From Batrachochytrium dendrobatidis JAM81 (Eukaryota; Chytridiomycota; Chytridiomycetes; Rhizophydiales), in NCBI RefSeq assembly GCF_000203795.2, contig NW_006281105.1:930001-994000 (forward strand): a DNA stretch of 64,000 nt, written 5' to 3'. Numbering within the stretch: position 1 is the stretch's first letter; every line of letters begins with the position of its first letter. Positions 4,346-61,000 of the stretch are shown here, piece by piece. The notes under the pieces were generated by a model. That model was not told where the DNA came from. It ran no database searches and was given only the letters and a program-made list of their open reading frames with translations. A program made the translations under genes and the position numbers.

Positions 4346-7300
4346 ATGCCTCGACAGTCATCGTTGAACAGAGAGAATGATCCGACGGAAACCATCCGTC
4401 CTAGTTCATCACAGCGTTCTTTCAACGAGAACCATGCTGACAACCACTTTCAACTGCAGGACACTTTCCGCATTCTGCTGGCTACAGACAATCATCTGGG
4501 TTATATGGAGAAAGATCCTATTAGAGGTCAGGATTCCTTCAATTCATTCGAAGAGATTCTTCAACTGGCTCAAGACAGAGAGGTTGGATTATGTTTAATG
4601 AAGGCTGATGGTTGGCATTCTTTTAGTCGGTTTACTGGATTGAAATATTGACTCAAGCTATGACTACCAAACATGCATTGATAGGTGGATATGGTGATAC
4701 TAGGTGGAGATCTCTTTCATGATAATAAACCTTCACAAAAAAGCCTTTGTACTGCAATGAGTCTGTTGCGCCAGTACTGTCTTGGCGATAAGCCATGTCC
4801 TATTGAGATCCTCAGTGACCAGAGCGAAAACTTTCCCAACAGGTGAAATCTGCATTCCAACTGCTCGAATGAGCTGTAGTATGACTAAGCATTGCCATCA
4901 CAACTTGTAGATTTGCAACAGTCAATTATCAGGATCCAAACTACAATGTCGGCATTCCTGTTTTTTCTATCCACGGAAACCATGACGATCCCTCTGGTGT
5001 ATGTATTTTATTCATGGACCAATGAACCAATGGCCTGATTGAATGTTTTGGTAGCTACATTTCGCTAATCTAGAATTTGGTTTTAGGGAGGTAACCTATG
5101 CGCATTGGAAGTACTGTCCGTGTCTGGACTCGTCAACTACTTTGGCAAACAGGCTACATTGGATGAAATTCATATCAAACCCATCCTGCTTCGCAAAGGA
5201 TCTTCTTATTTAGCGCTCTATGGTTTAGGAAATGTTCGAGATGAGCGTCTGAATCGCCTCTTTCGAGATCGTAAAGTTAAAATGTATCGCCCTAAAGAAT
5301 CACACGATATGAATGACGACGCTACTGAGCAATACATGGATGGAGCGTCTTCCTTACCATCGTGGTTTAACATGATGGTAATTCATCAAAATAGAACTGC
5401 TCATGGACGAAACAATTATATTCCTGAAGCGTACTTGGCAGACTTTCTCGATTTGGTTCTATGGGGTCATGAGCATCAATGCTTGATTGATCCTGTCGTA
5501 AACGACTCTAAAAACTTTTACGTGACCCAGCCGGGATCTTCTGTTGCCACGTCACTGTGTGAGGGAGAATCTGCTACAAAGTATGCTCTGCGTTAAATCA
5601 CTCATGAAAACATGTGCAAACTCTAAATCTCATTTCTTGATTACAAAAACATTCATTTTTGTGTATATACTTTTACTAATGTATGCGTATATAATATTCA
5701 GGCATATTGGCATTTTGAGTATTCAGGGAACTACATTTGCTGTGGAAAAAATCCGTTTAAAGTCTGTGCGTCCATTTGTCATGGACGAGGTGGTTTTGCA
5801 AAAAGTATCGCATCTATACACCAAGGATCAAGCAGCAGTAAATGAATATCTTCAACAAAAGGTTGCAGAAATGATTGAAATAGCAAGAATCAATTGGCAA
5901 GAACTGAATCCAGATGTAGATCCAGAAGAGTTTCCCAAACCATTGATCCGTCTCAAGGTTGGTAGATTTAAAGTTGTTTAACATCATCTGCTAATGTTCA
6001 TGTCTAGTATTTCCAATCGTGTCTAATTGATGAAATCACTAGGTTGAATATACAGGAGGATTCACTACATTCAATCCTCAACGATTTGGTCAATTTTACA
6101 TAGATAAAGTTGCCAACCCAAAAGAAATCATCAGTTTCTATCGTAAACGAACTGCGATAAAAGGTTCGAGTCATTCATCCTGTTTTATCACAAACCCATT
6201 TGCTATTAAACATGTCATCTTGTCAACAAATGAGTTGAATTCTCACAACACATAATATCTATTGTCATTGATGGAATTTAGCCAAACCATCTGAATTTGT
6301 CACCATAGAGCCTAATCTTCCTGGGGAACTTGACAAGCTTACAATTCAAGACCTCGTAGCACAATATCTCGATGCTCAAAAACTAGAAATTTTACCCGAG
6401 AATGAGCTTGCGGATGCTGTATTGAATCAGGTTGAAAAAAATGACAAGGATGCCATCAAGATGTTTGTTGATAAAACGCTTCGAGAAACCAAAAACGCTA
6501 TTAGAAATCGTATTGCTCCATCAAAATACAGTAATGCTGCTGAAAGAACATCACGGAACGTTGTTGAATCAAACGACATTAGACCTCAGGAGTCTAGAAA
6601 CCATATGTATGAAGAAAACGATGATGAAAGTGTAGATATCGAGAATATGGATCAACTAGATCGTGAAATTGCAAAAATCAAACTGAATCTGACACAGGCC
6701 TTTGCAGTCAAGGAACACAATATTGGTACTGCACAAAGAAACGATATTCGTCGTGAAGTGGATGCGACCCGAGCTGTTCGACATGTACAAGATGATTCAA
6801 ACGATTTTTATACAATGCAGGAAACACATGTAGCGCCAAAAAAACGCAGTACTGCTGCATCTCGTACTACTGCAGCAAAATCTCGAGCGAATACCACATC
6901 CTATAGGACTACTGTGGCATCTAGTCAGTTTGATGATGACAATGATTTTGATTTTGAACGCAATGCTGATTCGATAGCTACAAAAAGTACTGCTCGTGGT
7001 AGGTCTGAAATGTATGCAGAAGCAACAAGCAGAGGTGTACTGAAACCTCGAGGTAAATCTACTGCTATTGCAACTAGACGATCTGAGCCAAAAACAGCCA
7101 CACATTTCAAGGAGACTTTGTTTGAATCGGATTCGTTGAATTCACTTGACAGCTTTGATAAAGTGAATGCATTCAACAGTAGAAAAACACTTGGTATCGC
7201 GTCAGTATCTAAAATTGGATACAAATCAGATATATTTAAACCAACCGCTTCAGTATCAATGCTTGACGAGGTAATCTAGATTCTATTTGAATACAAATTT

Positions 7301-39721: not shown

Positions 39722-40135
39722 CAGTCATATTCACGTAAAATAAAACAAGGTCGGAATACATGATAAACAGTCAAGTCCGATTGTTGACAATCTTATTGGG
39801 ATGCATTATTTTATAAACTCATTAGTTGACTGATCGTTGTGCTTATTCTTGTACAAATATTCACATTTCTGTCCCAATACATTCCGCATCCTTGACATCT
39901 GTTCAACCTCCAATTCTCCTTTCCTCCAAAACAAATACTGGGTGACCTGCATGTAGAGTTGCATTTCCAACTGTGGTTTTGAACTATATTGCAAATATCT
40001 GATATCAGGATACAAGAGTTTCAATAGAAAAAGTAATCAATTTTTAATAACGAATATTCAATCATTGTTTATTCGGGAGCAAAATAGTCATTACAAGATA
40101 AATACAAAAGTGTTTCATTTTACGCAACTACGGCT
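39722..40135. mobile_element. ~414-bp terminal-inverted-repeat element (short form, copy 1)
   Basis: It begins TCATATTCACGTAAAATAAAACAAGG and ends TTTCATTTTACGCAACTACGGCTGTA, inverted with mismatches. It is nearly identical in sequence and orientation to 41131-41534. Its first ~280 bp aligns with the longer 60375-61000 copy, so it looks like an internal-deletion derivative. A 72-codon minus-strand frame (39806-40024) is shared with its sister copy but is not evidently a gene. Confidence 0.8.
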
Positions 40136-40288
40136 GTAAAATGTCTATTATTGAGAAGCAGCGCAGCTAACTCCTAGTAGGAATGCACGAGTATTTAACC
40201 ATTGTATATTCCAAAACAGAAAAGGTAGTTACGGCAAGATGGGTATGTGCGTTTTGTTCATATAAGCACGGCAGTAAAATATACGATT

Positions 40289-40966: not shown

Positions 40967-41661
40967 GTTGAGAGTAAATGTTGATGACTGAAAAGAACCG
41001 ATGAATTCTCGTTTTATAACTTTTCTGATTAGCTTAAATTTCTGAATTTGCCCTGAACCGCGTCGATATTGCTGGAAATGTATCGCATTTTCTAGAACAC
41101 TCGAATGCTCCGCGTCATCTCACCAAAAATTAGCCATATTCACGTAAAATGAAACAAGGTCGGAATACATGATAAACAGTCAAGTCCGATTGGTGACAAT
41201 CTTACTGGGATGCATTATTTTATAAACTCATTAGTTGACTGATCGTTGTGCTTATTCTTGTACAAATATTCACATTTCTGTCCCAATACATTCCGCATCC
41301 TTGACATCTGTTCAACCTCCAATTTTCCTTTCCTCCAAAACAAATACTGGGTGGCCTGCATGTAGAGTTGCATTTCCAACTGTGGTTTTGAACTAGATTG
41401 CAAATATCTGATATTAGAATACAAGAGTTTCAATAGAAAAAGTAATCAATTTTTAATAACGAATATTCAATCATTGTTTATTCCAAGGCAATCACTGCAA
41501 GATACAAAAAATTCCATTTTATGTAAATACGGCTATAAATTGAGCAATTTCACAAACCAAAAACTTGCAGGTTTAAAAGTGGATTGTTGAGATATAACCA
41601 AAAATATATATTTCCGCTCGCCTCTATTCCCATTGTTAGCTATAACCTCACATCAAATGTA
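40967..41661. other. Intergenic region containing one short-form element
   Basis: It holds the promoter of the Hsp20-like gene, the 41131-41534 element and the 3' flank of SPAG1. No further gene is seen. Confidence 0.6.
41131..41534. mobile_element. ~404-bp terminal-inverted-repeat element (short form, copy 2)
   Basis: It begins TAGCCATATTCACGTAAAATGAAAC and ends CATTTTATGTAAATACGGCTATA. The interior is almost the same as 39722-40135, including the conserved 72-codon frame with a few substitutions. The level of identity suggests recent spread. Confidence 0.8.
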
Positions 41662-43559: not shown

Positions 43560-44769
43560 CTGCCGTATTCACGTAAAATAGACCATATCTTGCAGCGATC
43601 GACTCTGAAATAAACAATAGTTTAGTATGTGTTGTTTTTCCAGTACATATTGACTTGGATAGACGTCCTCAACTCGTTGGTGTCTGAAATTGATTGACAC
43701 AACCTCATTCTTTACTATACTCGAGTCATTTATACTGGGTTAAAAATCGACAATAGAGTAGTGTAGTGTAGCTCCAATCTGCGCGCCGTTTGTTGAATGG
43801 TTGGTAAACCATATCTGATCAAATAGTTGTTTTGTGGAATGGAATATTGTTTGGAATAACATGCGTGTTTTGGAATGTTGCATGTCATTGTTTAAAAAGT
43901 CTTGACAACTTGATCAGTTTTTAAACACACCGACCATCATAGGATACACAACCAAACTATAGTTTTAAACTAGTGTGTTACACCCTGCATTTTTGAGTTT
44001 ATGGAATCATACATTGTGCGATCATCAGATTCATACATTGCAATCCAAACATTTGTTTGGATAGTGTCGACAAAATTCTGAACATATTCATTGTTGCCAA
44101 TCTGTCCGACTCAAGAGTTGGTTTTTGTCGTAATATTATCATCAAGATCATTGACATTGTTGACTGATATTTGCGTTTGAAACGTCTCGTCATTCAAGTG
44201 TTGATGACCACAGGGTTGTTAAACCATCAATCAATCATTTGATGACAATCTATTATAAAAGATAGATATTCATACGTAAAAGGACATATTTGGATGATGA
44301 ACCAGCATAAACTGTTTGTGAACAATGGTTTCAAGAATACAATCTTGTTCAGTAAATTGGCAATAATTCAACATGAGACTGTTTATTATGCATTTTAGCC
44401 TATTTGATGCTCCCTTATGTGGATACAGCACATCACCAAGTCGTTAAAGCTATATGCTTACAAAACGACCGTTGTTAAGGGACAGCCGCTAAGCATGAAT
44501 GATTTATGCATCTATCTATTATGGCACAAGTTAGCGTGGCACTATAGAAACAGTATCAAGCGTTTGTGACATGGTGCTAGAATAGGGAGGACCAATTAAA
44601 AGGATTGCTGAAAATAGTCTGGATGAAAAGGATGGATAAGCTGAAGGGCGACTAAAGATATTGAGAATACATATTTTGAACAATAATCTTTCATCAACTT
44701 AATACCAGCTGCATCGATTGCGAGTTATACAAACTGACTGATCATACCTCGCATTCCATAATTCCTCAA
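43560..44769. repeat. Spacer of S41 unit A (element-derived)
   Basis: 1210 bp lie from the terminus to the start codon, the same length as in unit B. The first ~830 bp aligns with the recurring element: terminus, CAGTACATATTGACT, a decayed frame with GATCGCACAATGTATGA, and TTGTTCAGTAAATTGGCAATAATTCAACATGAGAC near 44340. The remaining ~380 bp is presumably the S41 promoter. A 64-codon minus-strand frame (43999-44193) recurs in unit B but is broken in unit C, so it is not treated as a gene. Confidence 0.7.
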
Positions 44770-46813
44770 ATGATTGTTTTTTTGGTAGCAGTTTTAGCTG
44801 CTGCATCTTGCATCAATGCTCAGATTCCTACAGAACAACCTGCTTTTGTTGAACATGCTTGGTCCAAGTATAGACCCATCAACCTTTATCGCGATGCTGG
44901 ATTGTTTACCTTTTTCCCATATACTCTTGAACAGCGAAATGTTCTAGTGTCAAATGCCGAAAATGTATTCAAGGCAAGTTGTCATTCCATCACAATCTGA
45001 TACCATAACCAACACAATATATTGCAGCATATTATTAACTGACCAACACATTACAATCGAATTCCAATGATTCAACATGTCCAGGCATGGGTCAATTTTG
45101 AATCAAAAATGAAACATCATGGTCAAGAGGCAAATCCGTATCCTGCTCTCGAGCATATCCGAAACAATATCGAAACCCTTACTGATAAACAGCTCCAGCT
45201 TGGGTTACTGGATGCATTCACTCGAACTCGCGATGCACATACTTTCATGACGTTAGCTGGTCCGTATAGTTGCTTTTATGTTACCACGGGAATCTTTTTT
45301 CAATTTATTGATGGTCCAGGAGATATGATCAAAAACCCAACAATCGTCGTCAGTAAACCCGTCAATCGTGAAATATTTGACCTACTACGTAATACTGCTT
45401 ATAGCCAAATTAGAGTTGGAGATCAACTTGTCAGTATTAACGGCCTCACTTTTTACCAGTGGAAAAACAAACATCGAAATGTCATTGGTGGGTCTACCGA
45501 GTCTCATAGTCAGCGTTTAGCATTAAAATATTTGACTTCCAGGCATGGATCTCATACCCCACTTCCTGATGAAGACTCTATCAAGCTTAAACTAAAATCT
45601 CGTGGCGGCATCATATACGAAGTTGATGCACTACACATGTCTAAGCATCGATATAGCTGCTGGAAGTACTCCAGTAAACTTTACAAACATTTGACAGGCG
45701 TGGTTCTCAGTATACCTCTAAAAAATACAGTTGCTGTAAAATCCAATAGTCATGCCTTGTCAACTACAACAGTCGATGATCGTACCACAAGTTCCCAATC
45801 TACCAAGTCATTGGTCACTCCTCGCCATATTCGAAAACGGGATCAAAACAGTCAATATCAAGACACAGGACGATTGTCAAAACGTGATTTACGGATTTCA
45901 TTTTATCAAACGAGTATACTCGGACTATCTTGGACAATTTGGAGACCCAACGATCAAAACATGGGAATAATCAGACTGGCATCGTTCAGCTGCACGTCCC
46001 GCACAACAAACATGCAAAATACTCTTGAAGCCATTCTTGAAGTGACAAGACTATTGAAGACAGTGCTCAAAAACACCAATTCTATTTTGATCGATGTTCG
46101 TGAAGGTGGTGGTGGATGTCCAATTTTTGCAAATGCCATTCCACAGCTATTCAAGAGCAAGCTTGAACCATTTCAAGTGAAATATCTCATAAACAAGGTC
46201 ACATCCAATATGTTTGCAAATTCACCCGAGGAATTGAAATCATCTCGTAATGCTTGGTCCAAAACACCAGCTGGAAGCAAGTATTCAGTATTGCATTATA
46301 TTATGGATCCAAAGGAATTAGGAACTTACAATCCGATTTATGATAAACCAATGGGTGTATTTACCAGTGGTAATTGCGTTTCTGCATGTGAAGTCATGAC
46401 AGAATCCGTGCAGTCATTTGGAATCGGAACAGTGTTTGGTGAAGATGTCACAACGGCAGGTGCTGGTGCAAATGGTTGGGATCTAGATCCAGAACTTATC
46501 TTTTATGATCCGACAGACTTTAAACCAATGCCATTCAAAAAAGAGTTGACATCTGATACCAAGGAAACATTTTACAACGGAATGGCTGTAGGTCATCGGG
46601 CATTTGTCCGTAATGTCAATCATAAAGAACATCCGATTGAAGATATTGGCATCGTATCTGACGNNNNNNNNNNNNNNNNNNNNNNNNNNNNNNNNNNNNN
46701 NNNNNNNNNNNNNNNNNNNNNNNNNNNNNNNNNNNNNNNNNNNNNNNNNNNNNNNNNNNNNNNTTGCAAACTATTTGATTGAAGCTGGCAAAAGACCAGC
46801 CAAAACAGTTTGA
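44770..46813 (+). CDS. Secreted S41-family peptidase, copy A (contains assembly gap)
   Basis: S41 peptidases are serine proteases with a PDZ-like substrate-binding part. Exon 1 (44770-44973, 68 codons) encodes a signal peptide (MIVFLVAVLAAASCINA) and the N-terminus. After a GC-AG intron (44974-45084), exon 2 runs to 46813. A PDZ-like segment is YSQIRVGDQLVSINGLTFYQW. The core has NSILIDVREGGGG and VFTSGNCVSACEVMTESVQ, whose SACE serine fits the S41 nucleophile. The usual following lysine (TxGK) is absent; the sequence is VTTAGAGA. Two dibasic sites (IRKR, LSKR) lie between the halves. A 100-N gap at 46664-46763 breaks the frame. Without it the protein should be ~632 residues, like its neighbours. 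Confidence 0.85.
44974..45084 (+). other. GC-AG intron of S41 copy A
   Basis: The donor is AAG|GCAAGT, the ideal GC-AG consensus, and the acceptor is GTCCAG|GCATGG. Splicing gives VFKAWVNFES in frame. Using the GT two bases later (A|GTTGTC) leads to a stop within a few codons of exon 2. The same intron is in copies B (48299-48409) and C (51598-51708). Confidence 0.82.
46664..46763. other. Assembly gap of exactly 100 N in S41 copy A
   Basis: Copy B has 66 bp between the same flanking sequences. Unit A is 34 bp longer than unit B from terminus to terminus (3325 against 3291), exactly the excess caused by 100 N replacing 66 bp. The gap length is therefore a placeholder. Confidence 0.95.
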
Positions 46814-46884
46814 AATTTTTGAAGTTCTGTAATAATCCAGTTGATTACTATAAATCGACGAGTTTACGTTACTTCAACTATTCA

Positions 46885-48094
46885 CTGCTGTATTCACGTA
46901 AAATAGACCATATCTTGCAGCGATCGACTCTGAAATAAACAATAGTTTAGTATGTGTTGTTTTTCCAGTACATATTGACTTGGATAGACGTCCTCAACTC
47001 GTTGGTGTCTGAAATTGATTGACACAACCTCATTCTTTACTATACTCGAGTCATTTATACTGGGTTAAAAATCGACAATAGAGTAGTGTAGTGTAGCTCC
47101 AATCTGCGCGCCGTTTGTTGAATGGTTGGTAAACCATATCTGATCAAATAGTTGTTTTGTGGAATGGAATATTGTTTGGAATAATATGCGTGTTTTGGAA
47201 TGTTGCATGTCATTGTTTAAAAAGTCTTGACAACTTGATCAGTTTTTAAACACACCGACCATCATAGGATACACAACCAAACTATAGTTTTAAACTAGTG
47301 TGTTACACCCTGCATTTTTGAGTTTATGGAATCATACATTGTGCGATCATCAGATTCATACATTGCAATCCAAACATTTGTTTGGATAGTGTCGACAAAA
47401 TTCTGAACATATTCATTGTTGCCAATCTGTCCGACTCAAGAGTTGGTTTTTGTCGTAATATTATCATCAAGATCATTGACATTGTTGACTGATATTTGCG
47501 TTTGAAACGTCTCGTCATTCAAGTGTTGATGACCACAGGGTTGTTAAACCATCAATCAATCATTTGATGACAATCTATTATAGAAGATAGATATTCATAC
47601 GTAAAAGGACATATCTGGATGATGAACCAGCATAAACTGTTTGTGAACAATGATTTCAAGAATACAATCTTGTTCAGTAAATTGGCAATAATTCAACATG
47701 AGACTGTTTATTATGCATTTTAGCCTATTTGATGCTCCCTTATGTGGATACAGCATATCACCAAGTCGTTAAAGCTATATGCTTACAAAACGACCGTTGT
47801 TAAGGGACAGCCGCTAAGCATGAATGATTTATGCATCTATCTATTATGGCACAAGCCAGCGTAGCACTATAGAAACAGTATCAAGCGTTTGTGACATGGT
47901 GCTAGAATAGGGAGGACCAATTAAAAGGATTGCTGAAAATAGTCTGGATGAAAAGGATGGATAAGCTGAAGGGCGACTAAAGGTATTGAAAATACATATT
48001 TTGAACAATAATCTTTCATCAACTTAATACCAGCTGCATCGATTGCGAGTTATACAAACTGACTGATCATACCTCGCATTCCATAATTCCTCAA
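46885..48094. repeat. Spacer of S41 unit B (element-derived)
   Basis: A 1210-bp near-identical copy of 43560-44769. It begins CTGCTGTATTCACGTAAAATAGA, with one base different from the outer terminus. No gene is seen in it. Confidence 0.75.
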
Positions 48095-50104
48095 ATGATT
48101 GTTTTTTTGGTAGCAGTTTTAGCTGCTGCATCTTGCATCAATGCTCAGATTCCTACAGAACAACCTGCTTTTGTTGAACATGCTTGGTCCAAGTATAGAC
48201 CCATCAACCTTTATCGCGATGCTGGATTGTTTACCTTTTTCCCATATACTCTTGAGCAGCGAAATGTTCTAGTGTCAAATGCCGAAAATGTATTCAAGGC
48301 AAGTTGTCATTCCATCACAATCTGATACCATAACCAACACAATATATTGCAGCATATTATTAACTGACCAACACATTACAATCGAATTCCAATGATTCAA
48401 CATGTCCAGGCATGGGTCAATTTTGAATCAAAAATGGAATATCATGGTCAAGAGGCAAATCCGTATCCTGCTCTTGAGCATATCCGAAACAATATCGAAA
48501 CCCTTACTGATAAACAGCTCCAGCTTGGGTTACTGGATGCATTCACTCGAACTCGCGATGCACATACTTTCATGACGTTAGCTGGTCCGTATAGTTGCTT
48601 TTATGTTACCACAGGAATCTTTTTTCAATTTATTGATGGTCCAGGAGATATGATCCAAGACCCAACAATCGTCGTCAGTAAACCCGTCAATCGTGAAATA
48701 TTTGACCTACTACGTAATACTGCTTATAGTCGAATTAGAGTTGGAGATCAACTTGTCAGTATTAACGGCCTCACTTTTTACCAGTGGAAAAACAAACATC
48801 GAAATGTCATTGGTGGGTCTACCGAGTCTCATAGTCAGCGTCTAGCATTAAAATATTTGACCTTCAGATATGGATCTTATACCCCACTTCCTAGTGAAGA
48901 CTCTATCAAGCTTAAACTCAAATCTCGTAACGGTATCATATACGAAGTTGATGCACTACACATGTCTAAGCATCGATATAGCTGCTGGGAATACTCCAGT
49001 AAACTTTACAAACATTTGACAGGCGTGAATCTTGATATACATTTAGAAAATACAGTTGCTGTAAAATCCAATAGTCATGCCTTGTCAACTACAACAGTCG
49101 ATGATCGTACCACAAGTTCCCAATCTACCAAGTCATTGGTCACTCCTCGCCATATTCGAAAGCGGGATCAAATCAGTCAATATCAAGACACAGGACGATT
49201 GTCAAAACGTGATTTACGGATTTCATTTTATCAAACGAGTATACTCGGACTATCTTGGACAATTTGGAGACCCAACGATCAAAACATGGGAATAATCAGA
49301 CTGGCATCGTTCAGCTGCACGTCCCGCACAACAAACATGCAAAATACTCTTGAAGCCATTCTTGAAGTGACAAGACTATTGAAGACAGTGCTCAAAAACA
49401 CCAATTCTATTTTGATCGATGTTCGTGAAGGTGGTGGTGGATGTCCAATTTTTGCAAATGCCATTCCACAGCTATTCAAGAGCAAGCTTGAACCATTTCA
49501 AGTGAAATATCTCATAAACAAGGTCACATCCAATATGTTTGCAAATTCACCCGAGGAATTGAAATCATCTCGTAATGCTTGGTCCAAAACACCAGCTGGA
49601 AGCAAGTATTCAGTATTGCATTATATTATGGATCCAAAGGAATTAGGAACTTACAATCCGATTTATGATAAACCAATGGGTGTATTTACCAGTGGTAATT
49701 GCGTTTCTGCATGTGAAGTCATGACAGAATCCGTGCAGTCATTTGGAATCGGAACAGTGTTTGGTGAAGATGTCACAACGGCAGGTGCTGGTGCAAATGG
49801 TTGGGATCTAGATCCAGAACTTATCTTTTATGATCCGACAGACTTTAAACCAATGCCATTCAAAAAAGAGTTGACATCTGATACCAAGGAAACATTTTAC
49901 AACGGAATGGCTGTAGGTCATCGGGCATTTGTCCGTAATGTCAATCATAAAGAACATCCGATTGAAGATATTGGCATCGTATCTGACGTTGTAATCCGAC
50001 CACGGTTGGAAGATATTCTTTCTGGCGGAACGATTAATTCGCAGTACAATTATATTGCAAACTATTTGATTGAAGCTGGCAAAAGACCAGCCAAAACAGT
50101 TTGA
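48095..50104 (+). CDS. Secreted S41-family peptidase, copy B (mosaic)
   Basis: Exons 48095-48298 and 48410-50104 give 632 residues with the same signal peptide, PDZ-like segment, VREGGGG and TSGNCVSACEV core as copy A. The first part of exon 2 matches copy C (RYGSYTPLPSEDS, RNGIIYEV, WEYSSKLY, LDIHLEN). From about VAVKSNSHAL onward it matches copy A almost base for base (DDRTTSSQSTKS, VREGGGGCPIFANAIP). This is what gene conversion or unequal crossing-over near 49045 would leave. The C-terminus is complete (NYLIEAGKRPAKTV) and gives the expected sequence of the gap in copy A. Confidence 0.9.
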
Positions 50105-50175
50105 AATCCTTGGAATTCTGTAATAATCCAGTTTATTACTATAAATCGACGAGTTTACGTTACTTCAACTATTCA

Positions 50176-51393
50176 CTGCTGTATTCACGTAAAATAGACC
50201 ATATCTTGCAGCGATCGACTCTGAAATAAACAATAGTTTAGTATGTGTTGTTTTTCCAGTACATATTGACTTGGATAGACGTCCTCAACTCGTTGGTGTC
50301 TGAAATTGATTGACACAATCTCATTCCTTACTATACTCGAGTCATTTATGCTGGGTTAAAAATCGACAATATAGAGTAGTGTAATGTAGCTCCAATCTGC
50401 GCGCCGTTTGTTGAATGGTTGGTAAACCATATCTGATCAAATAGTTGTTTTGTGGAATGGAATACTGTCTAGAATAATATGCGTGTTTTGGAATGTTGCA
50501 TGTCATTGTTTAGAAAGTCTTGACAACTTGATCAGTTTTTAAACACACCGACCATTATAGGATACACAACCAAACTATAGTTTTAAACTGGTGTGTTACA
50601 CCTTGCATTTTTGAGTTTATGGATTCATACATTGTGCGATCATCAGATTCATACATTGTAATCCAAACATTGAATTTGTTTGGATAGTGTCAATAAAATT
50701 CTGAACATATTCATTGTTGCCAATCTGTCCGACTCAAGAGTTGGTTTTTGTCGTAATATTATCATCAAGATCATTGACATTGTTGACTGATATTTGCGTT
50801 TGAAACGTCTCGTCATTCAAGTGTTGATGACCACAGGGTTGTTAAACCATCAATCAATCATTTGATGACAATCTATTATAGAAGATAGATATTCATACGT
50901 AAAAGGACATATTTGGATGATGAACCAGCATAAACTGTTTGTGAACAATGATTTCAAGAATACAATCTTGTTCAGTAAATTGGCAATAATTCAACATGAG
51001 ACTGTTTATTATGCATTTTAGCCTATTTGATGCTCCCTTCATGTGGATACAGCATATCACCAAGTCGTTAAAGCTATATGCTTACAAAACGACCGTTGTT
51101 AAGGGACAGCCGCTAAGCATGAATGATTTATGCATCTATCTATTATGGCACAAGCCAGCGTAGCACTATAGAAACAGTATCAAGCGTTTGTGACATGGTG
51201 CTAGAATAGGGAGGACCAATTAAAAGGATTGCTGAAAATAGTCTGGATGAAAAGGATGGATAAGCTGAAGGGCGACTAAAGGTATTGAAAATACATATTT
51301 TGAACAATAATCTTTCATCAACTTAATACCAGCTGCATCGATTGCGAGTTATACAAACTGACTGATCATACCTCGCATTCCATAATTCCTCAA
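50176..51393. repeat. Spacer of S41 unit C (element-derived)
   Basis: A 1218-bp copy of the A and B spacers with several substitutions and small insertions, for example an extra TGAATT around 50672. The 64-codon minus-strand frame of A and B is broken here. Confidence 0.75.
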
Positions 51394-53403
51394 ATGATTG
51401 TTTTTTTGGTAGCAGTTTTAGCTGCTGCATCTTGCATCAATGCTCAGATTCCTACAGAACAACCTGCTTTTGTTGAACATGCTTGGTCCAAGTATAGACC
51501 CATCAACCTTTATCGCGATGCTGGATTGTTTACCTTTTTCCCATATACTCTTGAGCAGCGAAATGTTCTAGTGTCAAATGCCGAAAATGTATTCAAGGCA
51601 AGTTGTCATTCCATCACAATCTGATACCATAACCAACACAATATATTGCAGCATATTATTAACTGACCAACACATTACAATCGAATTCCAATGATTCAAC
51701 ATGTCCAGGCATGGGTCAATTTTGAATCAAAAATGGAATATCATGGTCAAGAGGCAAATCCATATCCTGCTCTCGAGCATATCCGAAACAATATCGAAAC
51801 CCTTACTGATGAACAGATCCAGCTTGGGTTACTGGATGCATTCACTCGAACTCGCGATGCACATACTTTCATGACGTTAGCTGGTCCGTATAGTTGCTTT
51901 TATGTTACCACAGGAATCTTTTTTCAATTTATTGATGGTCCAGGAGATATGATCCAAGACCCAACAATCGTCGTCAGTAAACCCGTCAATCGTGAAATAT
52001 TTGACCTACTACGTAATACTGCTTATAGTCGAATTAGAGTTGGAGATCAACTTGTCAGCATTAACGGCCTCACTTTTTACCAGTGGAAAAACAAACATCG
52101 AAATGTCATTGGTGGGTCTACCGAGTCTCATAGTCAGCGTTTAGCATTAAAATATTTGACCTTCAGATATGGATCTTATACCCCACTTCCTAGTGAAGAC
52201 TCTATCAAGCTTAAACTCAAATCTCGTAACGGTATCATATACGAAGTTGATGCACTACACATGTCTAAGCATCGATATAGCTGCTGGGAATACTCCAGTA
52301 AACTTTACACACAGCTGACAGGCGTGAATCTTGATATACATTTAGAAAATACAGTTGCTGTGAGAGCCAATAGTCATGCCTTGTCAACTACAACAGTCGA
52401 TGATCATACCACAAGTTCCCAATCTACCATGTCATTGGTCACTCCTCGCCATATTCGAAAACGGGATCAAAACAGTCAAGATCAAGACACAGGACGATTG
52501 TCAAAACGTGGTTTACGGATTTCATTTTATCAAACAGATATACTCGAACTATCTTGGACAATTTGGAAACCTGACAGCCAAAACATGGGAATAATCGAAT
52601 TGACATCGTTCGGGTGCACGTCTCGTAAAACAAACACGCAAAAGATTCCTGAAGGAATTCTTGAAGTGGAAAGACTATTGAAGACAGTGCTCAAAAACAC
52701 CAATTCTATTTTGATCGATGTTCGTGAAGGTGGTGGTGGAAGTATGGATTTTGCAAATGGCATTCTACAGCTATTCAAGAGTGATATTGAGCCATTTAAA
52801 GTGAAATGTCTCATAAACGAAGTCACATTCAATATGTTTGTAGAATCACCCATAGATTTGAAATCGTCTCGTAATGCTTGGCTCAAAACACCAGCTGGAA
52901 GCAAGTACTCACTATTCCATGATTTTACGGATCCAAAGGAATTCAACACTTACGATCCGGTTTATGATAAACCAATGGGTGTATTTACCAGTGGTAATTG
53001 CGCTTCTGCGTGCGAAATTATGGCAGGAACTGTGCAGTCGTATAACATTGGAACAGTGTTTGGTGAGGATGCCACAACAGCAGGTTCCGGTGCAGTCGTT
53101 TGGAGTTTAGATCCAGAACTTATCTTTTATGATTCGACAGACTTTAAACCAATGCCATTCAAAAAAGAGTTGACATCTCATACCAATGAGGAATTTTACA
53201 ACAAAATGGAGGTAGGTCATCGAGCATTCATCCGTAATGGCAATCGTAAAGGACGGCCGGTTGAAGATATTGGCATCGTATCTAATGTTGTAATCCGACC
53301 ACAACTGGAAGATATTATTTTTGACACAACAGATAGTCCACAGTACAATTTTATTGCAAACTATTTGATTGAAGCTGGCAAAAGACCAGCCAAAACAGTT
53401 TGA
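51394..53403 (+). CDS. Secreted S41-family peptidase, copy C
   Basis: Exons 51394-51597 and 51709-53403 give 632 residues. Exon 1 encodes the same peptide as in A and B. The C-terminal catalytic half is the most diverged of the three. It has VREGGGGSMDFANGILQLF, TSGNCASACEIMAGTVQSYNIG and VFGEDATTAGSGAVVW in place of the A/B residues. The SACE serine is kept and the lysine of the classical S41 dyad is again missing. The dibasic sites IRKR and LSKR remain. It is the oldest or fastest-diverging copy, or the one least touched by gene conversion. Confidence 0.9.
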
Positions 53404-54101
53404 AATTTTTGAAGTTCTGTAATAATCCAGTTGATTACTATAAATCGACGAGTTTACGTCACTTCAACTATTCACTGCTGTATTCACGTAAAATGGAGTT
53501 TGCATTTATCTTGCAGCAATCGACTTGTTGGAATAAACAATGTTTGAATACTTGTCGTTTTCGTACATAAATCGACAATAGAGTAGTGTAGTGTAGCTCC
53601 AATCTGCGCGCCGTTTGTTGAATGGTTGGTAAACCATATCTGATCAAATAGTTGTTTTGTGGAATGGAATATTGTTTGGAATAACATGCGTGTTTTGGAA
53701 TGTTGCATGTCATTGTTTAAAAAGTCTTGACAACTTGATCAGTTTTTAAACACACCGACCATCATAGGATACACAACCAAACTATAGTTTTAAACTAGTG
53801 TGTTACACCCTGCATTTTTGAGTTTGTGGAATCATACATTGTGCGATCATCAGATTCATACATTGCAATCCAACATTTGTTTGGAAACTCTTTTCTGTTG
53901 TATCCTGATATTAGATACGCTTTAGTTCAAGAAACCCAAGATTCCAACTTGATACAATCACCAAAAGATTAACAGAATTCAATATTGACCAATCACTTTA
54001 TGAGATTGCGTATTTGACTCTTATTTAGTGTTCTATTTTACGTGAATACGGCAGGATAAAGCCATTGTATTGATAACAGTCGAAACTCGATACCAAGAGC
54101 A
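53404..54101. repeat. Truncated fourth S41 spacer and array right end
   Basis: The terminus at 53475-53497 (CTGCTGTATTCACGTAAAATGGA) is followed by a partly deleted spacer. AAATCGACAATAGAGTAGTG onward (about 53567-53885) matches the S41 spacers almost exactly and then stops at CAACATTTGTTTGGA. About 145 bp of other sequence leads to the inverted terminus at 54032-54054. No fourth peptidase gene is present. Confidence 0.75.
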
Positions 54102-58743: not shown

Positions 58744-60391
58744 ATGGATCAGAGTGTCAGAGGATCTGCTACTACTGAGCAAGGCTCGTCTCATACAGTA
58801 TCTAGTTCCCCTTCATTCACTACTGATTCCTTCATCTTTATTTCTCCAACTGGTTCTCCCATCTTTATTTCTCCAACTGCTTCTTCAGCTTCGGTTGCAA
58901 TTTCGCCAACGGTAAGTTTATTTGCCATCATGAATCATTCGAATTTACACTTGTTTATCTCTGTTTTAATATATATATAATCTTGTTTAGTCTATAGTCA
59001 GCCATCCTAATACAACCCAGGCCAAAAATTCTAGTCCAGTTCTGTTTATAGGTATTGGCCTGGCCTCCCTAATTGCACTAGGAATGGTTGCTCTTTTGCT
59101 GTATTACATTTTAAAACATCGATCTCTTGCCAAGAAGCACGAAAAAACCCAAAATACCAGCCCTATTTCAAAGGAATCTTATGATGGCGGTGAATTTTGT
59201 ATTTCGAATCAACACCATAGTCGTCAACTTCATAAGCAACAAAAATCACCACAACCACTGTCATTGGATCCATCATTATTTCAAATTCAATCTCGACAAT
59301 TAAAAATGAGTACTCTACCTAGACTTGAACTGCCAGAGTCATCGTATAGTCCCCTGTCAGTTACATTTATCAACGGCTTAGCCTCTCCTTTTGCTCTGTC
59401 GCTTAGAGACGACACATCAACTTGCAATGCACTCAAACTGCGCGACTCAATGTATGCACCGCCACATGTAATATCTGCCTATCCACATACTCCAACCAAC
59501 TGCCTCGGTGTTAATCTTGACCAACCCTCAGTTTCACTAATTACTCCCCCGGACTCGTCCAAACTCCAACAGGCTACTCCCGATCTTTATTGGGAGCGTG
59601 CATACTATTTTGATGAAGATCCAAACTTTGATGGGTACAATGGTGTTCTTGTGCCTGGTCATACTGGGATTCGTCATTCACAGATTTCATTACAAGATTC
59701 ATCCAACCTGGATATGGCTGTACTTTCTAGCATGGTCACAGTCAATGTCCCTATCAATGATTCATTTGCAAATCTCAGTCCCAGACTTGGCTCAATCATG
59801 GCTTCACCAAGTAAACCATACCTTGCTTTTCCCCTTGCTGAAAGCTTAGAAACTGCGCTACATTGCTCCACACAAATATCATCTTCAGAGCGCAGCACAA
59901 ATCAGACCCCTCATGACTCAAATCCAGATGCGGCCTACAATCCAAAAAATGTACCCAGCCAACCATCTCCATTGTATACACCTTCGGTGCATCAAATAGA
60001 ATTGAACCCCAACAATTATGACATGGATCGATCTGCTGAAAGTATAAATTCTGACTCTAGCTCTACTGCAATGCCATTTACCTCGACTGAGTGGGCTGCA
60101 TCTCTTTCTCGAATGGCTTTCTCGCATCAATATATTTCGACTATGCAAACCACCAAAAATAGCGCTACATCTATGCCTTTTCAACATCAGAATATGCAGC
60201 TGAATTTTGCAAGTAATGATACTGATATGAACGACTCGTACACGAATATAGAACATGCAATCTTTACTCGTCCTGTCTCATTTTCCAGCAAATCTTTTGC
60301 ATCAAGTGCATCTGCTACCTCGAATAACATATGGTTCGATACTGATTCAAAGACAGACTCTTTACATGATTCCACTGCCGTATTCACGTAA
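58744..60391 (+). CDS. Single-pass membrane protein, unknown function
   Basis: Exons 58744-58911 and 58991-60391 give 522 residues. The first ~80 residues are Ser/Thr/Pro-rich, with FIFISPTGSPIFISPTASS repeats. One transmembrane segment follows (VLFIGIGLASLIALGMVALLLYYIL) and a basic KHRSLAKKHEK stop-transfer. The ~420-residue cytoplasmic tail is Ser/Thr/Asn-rich without a known domain. No N-terminal signal peptide is visible, so topology is inferred from the basic flank. The final codons and TAA lie inside the terminus of the adjacent element (GCC GTA TTC ACG TAA), so the original C-terminus may have been replaced by the insertion. Confidence 0.7.
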
Positions 60392-61000
60392 AATGGATCA
60401 CTAGATATGCCAAGATACATAGTAAACGGTCAGTTTCATGTTTGATTGGTGCCAAATTTACTGGGAAACAACGTGCTCTCTGGACCTCCTAATAAGGTTC
60501 ATTGATCTTTATGCCCATTTTTGTACAAAAACAGCAAATGTTCAATACAGTGTTTGTATCTGTTCCAATAAACTCCATATCCTTGACATTTTTAACCTCC
60601 AACTTCCCTTTGTCCATACCAAACATTGAGTGATTGAAATGAAAACAATTGTCACTCCTGATTTACAATCATTGTTTTGTTGGACTAGAACGCGAACGTA
60701 TCTGATTCCAGAATACAAGAGCGTGTACAGAGTTGTATTGACAACATCAACAGTCCAATTCAATATGTGCAGTCTAGTGTACAAGTATGGTTTAAATTTG
60801 GCGATTGTACAATGTATGACTACCAAAAAGAAAAAAAGGACAACTATAGTCTGATTGTGCCTCATATAATGAACGTGTTTGAAGAATTGAGAATGTCTAT
60901 TAAGAAGCAGTCAACTCCCAATAGAAAAACGCAACGAGTGTCCAGCCATTGTGTATTACCAAGAAAATACAAGTGTTGTATTCTACGTGAATACGGCTGT
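60375..61000. mobile_element. Terminal-inverted-repeat element (long form), copy 1
   Basis: It begins CTGCCGTATTCACGTAAAATGG (60374 on) and ends TATTCTACGTGAATACGGCTGTA near 61002. The interior has a frame of ~75-125 codons starting MIEMKTIVTPDLQSLFC at 60630. It is shifted by one base in a poly-A run (near 60829) relative to copy 2, where it stays open to the terminus. The left terminus supplies the stop codon of the upstream membrane protein gene. Confidence 0.82.

What the first reader, a model, noticed from the sequence alone, without database searches (positions are those of the whole stretch)
43560..54054. A secreted-peptidase array is enclosed by a perfect 23-bp inverted terminus
The 23-bp ends at 43560 and 54032 are exact inverted copies, and each internal unit starts with a one-base variant of the same sequence. 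A repeat unit of [element + S41 gene] amplified in tandem inside outer element ends suggests that element-mediated recombination or transposition built the expansion. S41 expansion is a known theme in Batrachochytrium; a mechanism tied to a short element would be new.
Basis: partly seen in the sequence, partly recalled or inferred. Interest (0 to 1): 0.85.

Follow-up and report, generated by a model that had tools for sequence, protein, structure and literature searches.

The report
Transposon-relic-sandwiched S41 peptidase gene array
In the frog chytrid fungus, three tandem peptidase-family genes alternate with relics of a very common Tc1/mariner-like jumping element, and the array likely grew by unequal recombination between repeated copies rather than by jumping as one unit; the idea would tie one species-specific gene expansion to ordinary transposon debris.

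Summary
In detail: an exact 23-bp inverted pair (43560-43582, 54032-54054), with one-base variants at 46885 and 50176. But the 23-mer is a common transposon end: 1168 genome copies within 3 mismatches of its degenerate form, reversed control 0. It bounds elements of about 290-1100 bp, mostly with TA outside, related to DDE_3 (Tc1/mariner-type) transposase sequence. The two outer copies end two different elements, and no matching target duplication encloses the 10.5 kb (TA left, GA right). Three S41 genes alternate with four same-way elements; two other arrays also hold n genes and n+1 elements. All 13 copies of this ~580-aa S41 clade carry the terminus just 3' of the gene; 0 of 14 other S41 genes that could be checked have a close copy within 3 kb. 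Gene 3 is a hybrid: 5' half like gene 2, 3' half old, switching at 52531-52547. Best reading: an S41 gene caught between direct-repeat transposon relics, amplified by unequal recombination in relics and later in genes. Composite transposition is not supported. The clade was found only in Batrachochytrium dendrobatidis. A 100-N gap in gene 1 leaves the copy number open.

The parts
43560..43582 (+). left terminal inverted repeat (TIR) of element A1; TTTA outside
43560..44433 (+). element A1, about 874 bp, transposon relic; decayed right TIR at about 44414-44433 (position by eye)
   Evidence: stand-alone copy C31:614343-615215 with the same left edge and nearly the same right edge; 79% identity over 164 bp of A1 to the DDE_3-bearing element
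44770..46813 (+). S41 gene copy 1; start and first exon by eye, end by comparison with copy 2; frame interrupted by the assembly gap
46664..46763 (.). 100-N assembly gap inside copy 1
46885..47758 (+). element A2, TIR one base off; S41 3' flank runs up to its first base (right end by projection)
48095..50104 (+). S41 gene copy 2 (main ORF 48392-50104, 570 aa; start of first exon by eye)
50176..51057 (+). element A3 (right end by projection)
51394..53403 (+). S41 gene copy 3 (main ORF 51691-53403, 570 aa; start of first exon by eye), hybrid gene
52531..52547 (+). interval of the switch from copy-2-like to old (other-locus-like) sequence in gene 3
   Evidence: 257 of 297 sites fit one switch, 0 of 2000 permutations reach it
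53475..54054 (+). last element, 580 bp, chimeric: B-type left end, A-type middle, own right end
53569..53885 (+). A-like segment in the last element, 99.4% to A1
54032..54054 (-). right TIR of the last element, exact inverse of 43560-43582; GA outside

Best explanation
Three S41 peptidase-family genes alternate with four same-way relics of a Tc1/mariner-like transposon, and this array was likely built by unequal homologous recombination between direct repeats. Shown: the 23-mer is the terminal inverted repeat of a high-copy element family; all 13 copies of one ~580-aa S41 clade have an element starting 52-73 bp after the stop codon (12 measured; the first copy's frame is broken by the gap) and element sequence lies just upstream of the gene at all 8 loci; three arrays hold n genes and n+1 elements; gene 3 and the last element are hybrids. 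Inferred: an ancestral S41 gene was caught between two related elements lying the same way; a first unequal exchange (its junction falls within the ~20-bp terminus shared by the upstream A-type and downstream B-type element, or a whole element was converted) made an S41-A repeat unit; later exchanges used long homology, including the gene body. The perfect inverted pair at the outer edges is then only the left end of the first relic and the right end of the last.
For: TIR nature: 1168 copies, 565/603 by strand, reversed control 0/0; conservation is confined to the terminus and about 4 bases outside; neighbour pairs facing 20, back-to-back 8, same-way 4; TA directly outside 46 of 74 distinct copies against 6.3% TA in the window. 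Transposase link: L075 has TIRs at 1213(+) and 1946(-) around a DDE_3 match; A1 is 79% identical over 164 bp to the DDE_3-bearing stretch of L078, and the 1098-bp TIR-bounded element in L060 aligns with both. Sandwich: terminus 3' of 13 of 13 clade members; element sequence 5' at 8 of 8 loci, at C33 by a similarity hit alone. n+1: window 3 genes/4 elements, C31:671-679 kb 2/3, C13 3/4. A-copies abut four different left contexts at the same place. C13 unit homology ends at TIR plus TA. Hybrid gene: 257 of 297 sites, 0 of 2000 permutations; w2+w3 rejected in the 3' half, AU p 1e-9.
Against: The gene-3 switch lies in the gene, so no crossover has been mapped to an element in that step. Gene conversion could give the same mosaics without crossover. 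In the 3' half, holding w1-w3 with b1, b2 as one clade was not rejected (AU p 0.135). The edge of C15a/C15b homology lies inside the 5' element, about 244 bp from its left TIR, not at the TIR. The 13 of 13 count is not 13 independent events: paralogues inherit the element. TA outside is missing at 28 of 74 copies and at both sides of the window's last element; no empty site was seen. The gap in gene 1 may hide units.
Confidence: 0.66

Rival explanations
1. Composite transposition: transposase acted on the outermost ends and moved element-S41-element as one unit, which then amplified.
For: Exact outer inverted pair. Left edges of the window array and of the C31:671-kb array lie at the element's end in unrelated flanks. 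C9 has TA on both outer sides if the weak TIR at 6668 is real (score 2.4). Among the matches scored, copies of A at 93% or more are all on contig C31.
Against: Window flanks TA/GA do not match. The second array has CA on its left and a decayed right end. The right TIR of A is decayed in all 7 copies aligned. The last element of the window is of another kind than the first.
Confidence: 0.12
2. Circle re-integration: recombination between direct elements looped out an S41+A circle that re-entered at a solo A copy elsewhere on the chromosome, giving A-S41-A at a new place.
For: Explains n+1, direct orientation and edges at the element's end at two loci about 300 kb apart without target duplication; a solo A exists at C31:614343.
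Against: No circle was sought or seen; segmental duplication of the region explains the same facts.
Confidence: 0.12
3. Passenger: the elements are inert debris inside a gene unit that was duplicated by processes unrelated to them, and the edges coincide because elements are dense.
For: Elements are dense here (18 termini in 64 kb). One recombination is mapped to the gene. The other S41 genes expanded without a nearby close copy (0 of 14 checkable).
Against: Arrays start and end with an element at three loci, with edges at the element's end in several cases.
Confidence: 0.22
4. Functional 3' end: the element was kept because it supplies the polyadenylation signal of the S41 gene, and the arrays reflect selection on the whole unit.
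For: AATAAA lies 49-57 nt inside the element in 13 of 13 copies, and in 11 of 13 no AATAAA was found before the terminus in the stretch examined.
Against: No transcript data were used; AATAAA is part of the family's common subterminal sequence, also away from S41 genes (seen by eye). Two copies have another AATAAA before the terminus.
Confidence: 0.2

Closest known systems
Tc1/mariner (IS630) superfamily transposons and their non-autonomous relics/MITEs
   Same: Terminal inverted repeats, TA outside in 46 of 74 copies, DDE_3 transposase sequence inside one TIR-bounded copy. That CAG ends and TA targets mark this superfamily is recalled, not looked up.
   Different: No intact transposase was seen; A is an 874-bp relic with a decayed right end; no empty site was available.
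LINE-flanked M36 metalloprotease expansion in B. salamandrivorans (PMC9926174)
   Same: Protease family expanded next to transposon copies; its authors name ectopic recombination between repeats as a possible cause (abstract text and passages seen).
   Different: There a LINE upstream of M36 genes in the sister species; here a DNA-transposon relic on both sides of one S41 clade in B. dendrobatidis.
S41 family expansion of B. dendrobatidis (PMC3207900, 32 S41 genes)
   Same: Same gene family and species; largely species-specific duplications (passages seen).
   Different: The passages seen give no unit structure and no element.

Membership tests
Tc1/mariner (IS630) superfamily | short terminal inverted repeats in facing pairs | tested here: met
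   20 facing, 8 back-to-back, 4 same-way neighbour pairs within 1300 bp; the sample is loci fetched for other reasons, and L060/L061 are copies of one element
Tc1/mariner (IS630) superfamily | TA target-site duplication | tested here: inconclusive
   TA outside 46 of 74 single ends, background 6.3%; TA on both sides in 9 of the 20 facing pairs, counted by eye from the rows; no empty site
Tc1/mariner (IS630) superfamily | DDE_3-type transposase inside the same termini | tested here: met
   L075, match 1501-1800 between TIRs 1213 and 1946; 24 DDE_3 matches in the genome; at score 9 or more 1 of the 6 loci looked at has facing TIRs on both sides of the match
Tc1/mariner (IS630) superfamily | intact transposase with full catalytic triad | not tested
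Composite transposon (10.5 kb unit) | matching target duplication outside the two outer ends | tested here: not met
   TA left, GA right
Tandem array by unequal exchange between flanking direct repeats | n genes with n+1 same-way repeats, arrays beginning and ending in a repeat | tested here: met
   3/4, 2/3, 3/4 at three loci; the leftmost repeat at C13 is a 102-bp mini-element
Tandem array by unequal exchange between flanking direct repeats | hybrid copies at exchange points | tested here: met
   gene 3 and the last element; conversion not excluded
Peptidase family S41 | PF03572 over its cut-off | tested here: met
   37 and 52.1 bits for copies 2 and 3, cut-off 24; 34 matches in the genome over the cut-off

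The most novel reading that the evidence does not exclude
A short transposon end is the engine of one species-specific protease radiation: an S41 gene locked between two direct Tc1/mariner-like relics became a self-propagating cassette that multiplies by exchange at the relics, spreads to new sites by leaving and re-entering at solo relics, and uses the relic's AATAAA as its own 3' end.
Probability: 0.15. Interest if true: 0.75.

Novelty: new member of a known kind. Interest (0 to 1): 0.45.

Why it matters
Gene families for proteases are a main genomic mark of the amphibian chytrids, and how they multiplied is open. Here one S41 clade, found only in B. dendrobatidis in the protein search, can be told from the other S41 genes by a DNA-transposon relic at a fixed place. 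That gives a concrete, strain-testable route for copy-number change and a warning: such arrays may be miscounted in assemblies, as the gap in this one shows.

Tried and rejected
Rejected: the outer inverted pair as a special boundary. The termini are dense, and the two copies belong to different elements. Rejected: a terminus common to S41 genes in general. Of the S41 matches outside the clade on contigs C1-C20, 0 of 14 (of 21 in the genome) have a copy within 1 mismatch in 3 kb, against 6 of 6 clade members there; M36 0 of 19, aspartyl protease 1 of 53. More decayed termini would be missed. Five 3' flanks of the larger class (about 400 bp beyond the stop) have no terminus at score 4 or more. 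Considered: a regulatory or terminator motif instead of a TIR; set aside because of the facing pairs, stand-alone copies and transposase sequence, though a secondary role in 3' ends stays open. Tried without use: the all-N pattern (error); literature searches, whose listings show no paper that names this element in title or abstract. The weighted model of the terminus was built from 58 copies that include this window's own, so its scores there are partly circular; the reversed control is not. One search scored 40 of 195 candidates and one search scored 40 of 408, so their lists of copies are partial. On re-check, the distance from stop to terminus was 52-73 bp in 12 copies; copy 1 cannot be measured through the gap.

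Full report
Setting. The window lies at C31:930001-994000 of a 23.49-Mb genome in 33 contigs. Protein neighbours of the S41 genes are named Batrachochytrium dendrobatidis, and two of them, labelled JAM81, lie on contigs of 561733 and 1702824 bases, the lengths of C9 and C15 here. The genome is therefore very likely that strain's.

The observation. The 23-mer at 43560-43582 and its exact inverse at 54032-54054 are real, as are the variants at 46885 and 50176 and a fourth direct copy at 53475. A 100-N gap interrupts gene 1.

What the 23-mer is. Within 3 mismatches of its degenerate form it occurs 1168 times in the genome, about equally on both strands, and never in the reversed control. In this window a weighted model finds 18 copies and none in the reversed window. 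Among 64 distinct copies conservation runs from about 4 bases outside through about 26 bases and then fades. Among 74 copies with different outer flanks, after 11 S41-type copies were set aside and 2 repeats of the same flank dropped from 87, 46 have TA directly outside, against 6.3% TA in the window. Neighbouring copies face each other 20 times, stand back to back 8 times and point the same way 4 times; the facing pairs are 286-1099 bp long. These are terminal inverted repeats. DDE_3 finds 24 places in the genome; of six loci looked at, at score 9 or more, L075 has facing termini on both sides of the match and L078 and L079 one just behind it. Element A1 of the window is 79% identical over 164 bp to the DDE_3-bearing stretch of L078, and a 1098-bp TIR-bounded element in L060 aligns with both. 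A1 is thus a relic of a Tc1/mariner-like transposon.

Element A. Seven copies aligned (three here, three at C31:671-679 kb, one alone at C31:614 kb) start at the same place, the first bases varying, in four different left contexts: the flank here, two others, and the S41 3' flank. They part company on the right within a decayed terminus. Of the matches scored by the genome search (40 of 195 candidates), those of 93% or more are all on C31; elsewhere longer matches are about 68-79%, and 143-bp pieces reach 90-91%.

The S41 clade. PF03572 has 34 matches; 13 have open frames of 578-585 aa and 21 are of other lengths, mostly 814-868 aa. All 13 have the terminus just 3' of the gene, 52-73 bp after the stop in the 12 that can be measured. 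All 8 loci have element sequence directly 5', at C33 by similarity alone and at C13 and C21 as a 102-bp mini-element. Of the other matches, 0 of 14 on C1-C20 have a close copy within 3 kb, against 6 of 6 of the clade. In the protein search 28 proteins were found; the 18 at 64% identity or more are all named B. dendrobatidis, and B. salamandrivorans reaches 38%.

How the arrays look. Window: element-gene three times, then a last element, 3 genes and 4 elements. C31:671-679 kb: 2 genes and 3 elements. C13: 3 genes and 4 elements, the first a mini-element. At C13 the repeat-unit homology ends at the terminus plus TA. In the A-type units the S41 3' flank passes into A within the terminus: up to the shared ~20 bases it is like the B-type loci, from base 21 it is A. 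That junction marks either a crossover in the terminus or conversion of a whole element.

Hybrids. Gene 3 is 95-100% like gene 2 over its first part and then about as distant from it as from the other loci. Of 297 informative sites 257 fit a single switch between 52531 and 52547 (left 165 against 7, right 92 against 33); 0 of 2000 permutations reach that. In the 5' half it groups with w1, w2, b1, b2 at 100/100; in the 3' half those four group without it at 100/100, and w2+w3 together is rejected (p-AU 1e-9). Holding all five together in the 3' half is not rejected (p-AU 0.135). The last element is B-type for 95 bp, then 99.4% like A1 for 318 columns, then something else. So exchange between copies is shown; whether by crossover or conversion is not.

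Against a moving unit. The flanks of the 10.5-kb stretch are TA and GA, the first and last elements are different kinds, and the right end of A is decayed in every copy aligned. Composite transposition is not needed and not supported, but no empty site could be seen. The homology of C15a and C15b begins inside their 5' element, not at its end.

Print. Passages of PMC9926174, PMC12204190, PMC5364385 and PMC3207900 were seen by term search. PMC9926174 ties M36 genes of the sister species to LINEs and does not hold S41 as a whole word; the terms MITE and mariner do not occur in the main text of PMC9926174 or PMC12204190, mariner not in PMC5364385. The listings of searches show no paper on this element; supplements were not searched.

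Verdict. A sound observation with a simpler meaning: transposon relics around one gene clade, with real signs of recombination between copies. Known kind, new case.

Noticed in passing
window 39722-40136, 41131-41535, 60375-60999: Three further TIR-bounded elements of the same superfamily, 405-625 bp; the first two share their left subterminal sequence.
   Followed up: partly
window 46934-46939 and equivalents inside the 3' elements: AATAAA 49-57 nt inside the element behind 13 of 13 S41 clade genes, possibly their polyadenylation signal.
   Followed up: partly
C12:5499-6859 and 16 like it (L078, L079): A 1.36-kb DDE_3-bearing stretch occurs in 17 full-length copies at 96-100% identity among 40 scored candidates, several near contig ends; it looks like a subtelomeric repeat.
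   Followed up: no
C3:842104 (L009): An exact copy of the 23-mer lies 1.1 kb from an aspartyl-protease match in a cluster at C3:840-891 kb, the only one of 53 such places entered that has a close copy within 3 kb.
   Followed up: no
C13:65.1-66.5 kb and C21:1526.4-1527.8 kb (L072, L063): The 5' flanks of the C13 and C21 S41 loci are 97% identical beyond the mini-element, a segmental duplication.
   Followed up: no
window 44974-45084: The S41 intron appears to begin with GC rather than GT, joining a 68-codon first exon in frame to the main ORF (by eye).
   Followed up: no
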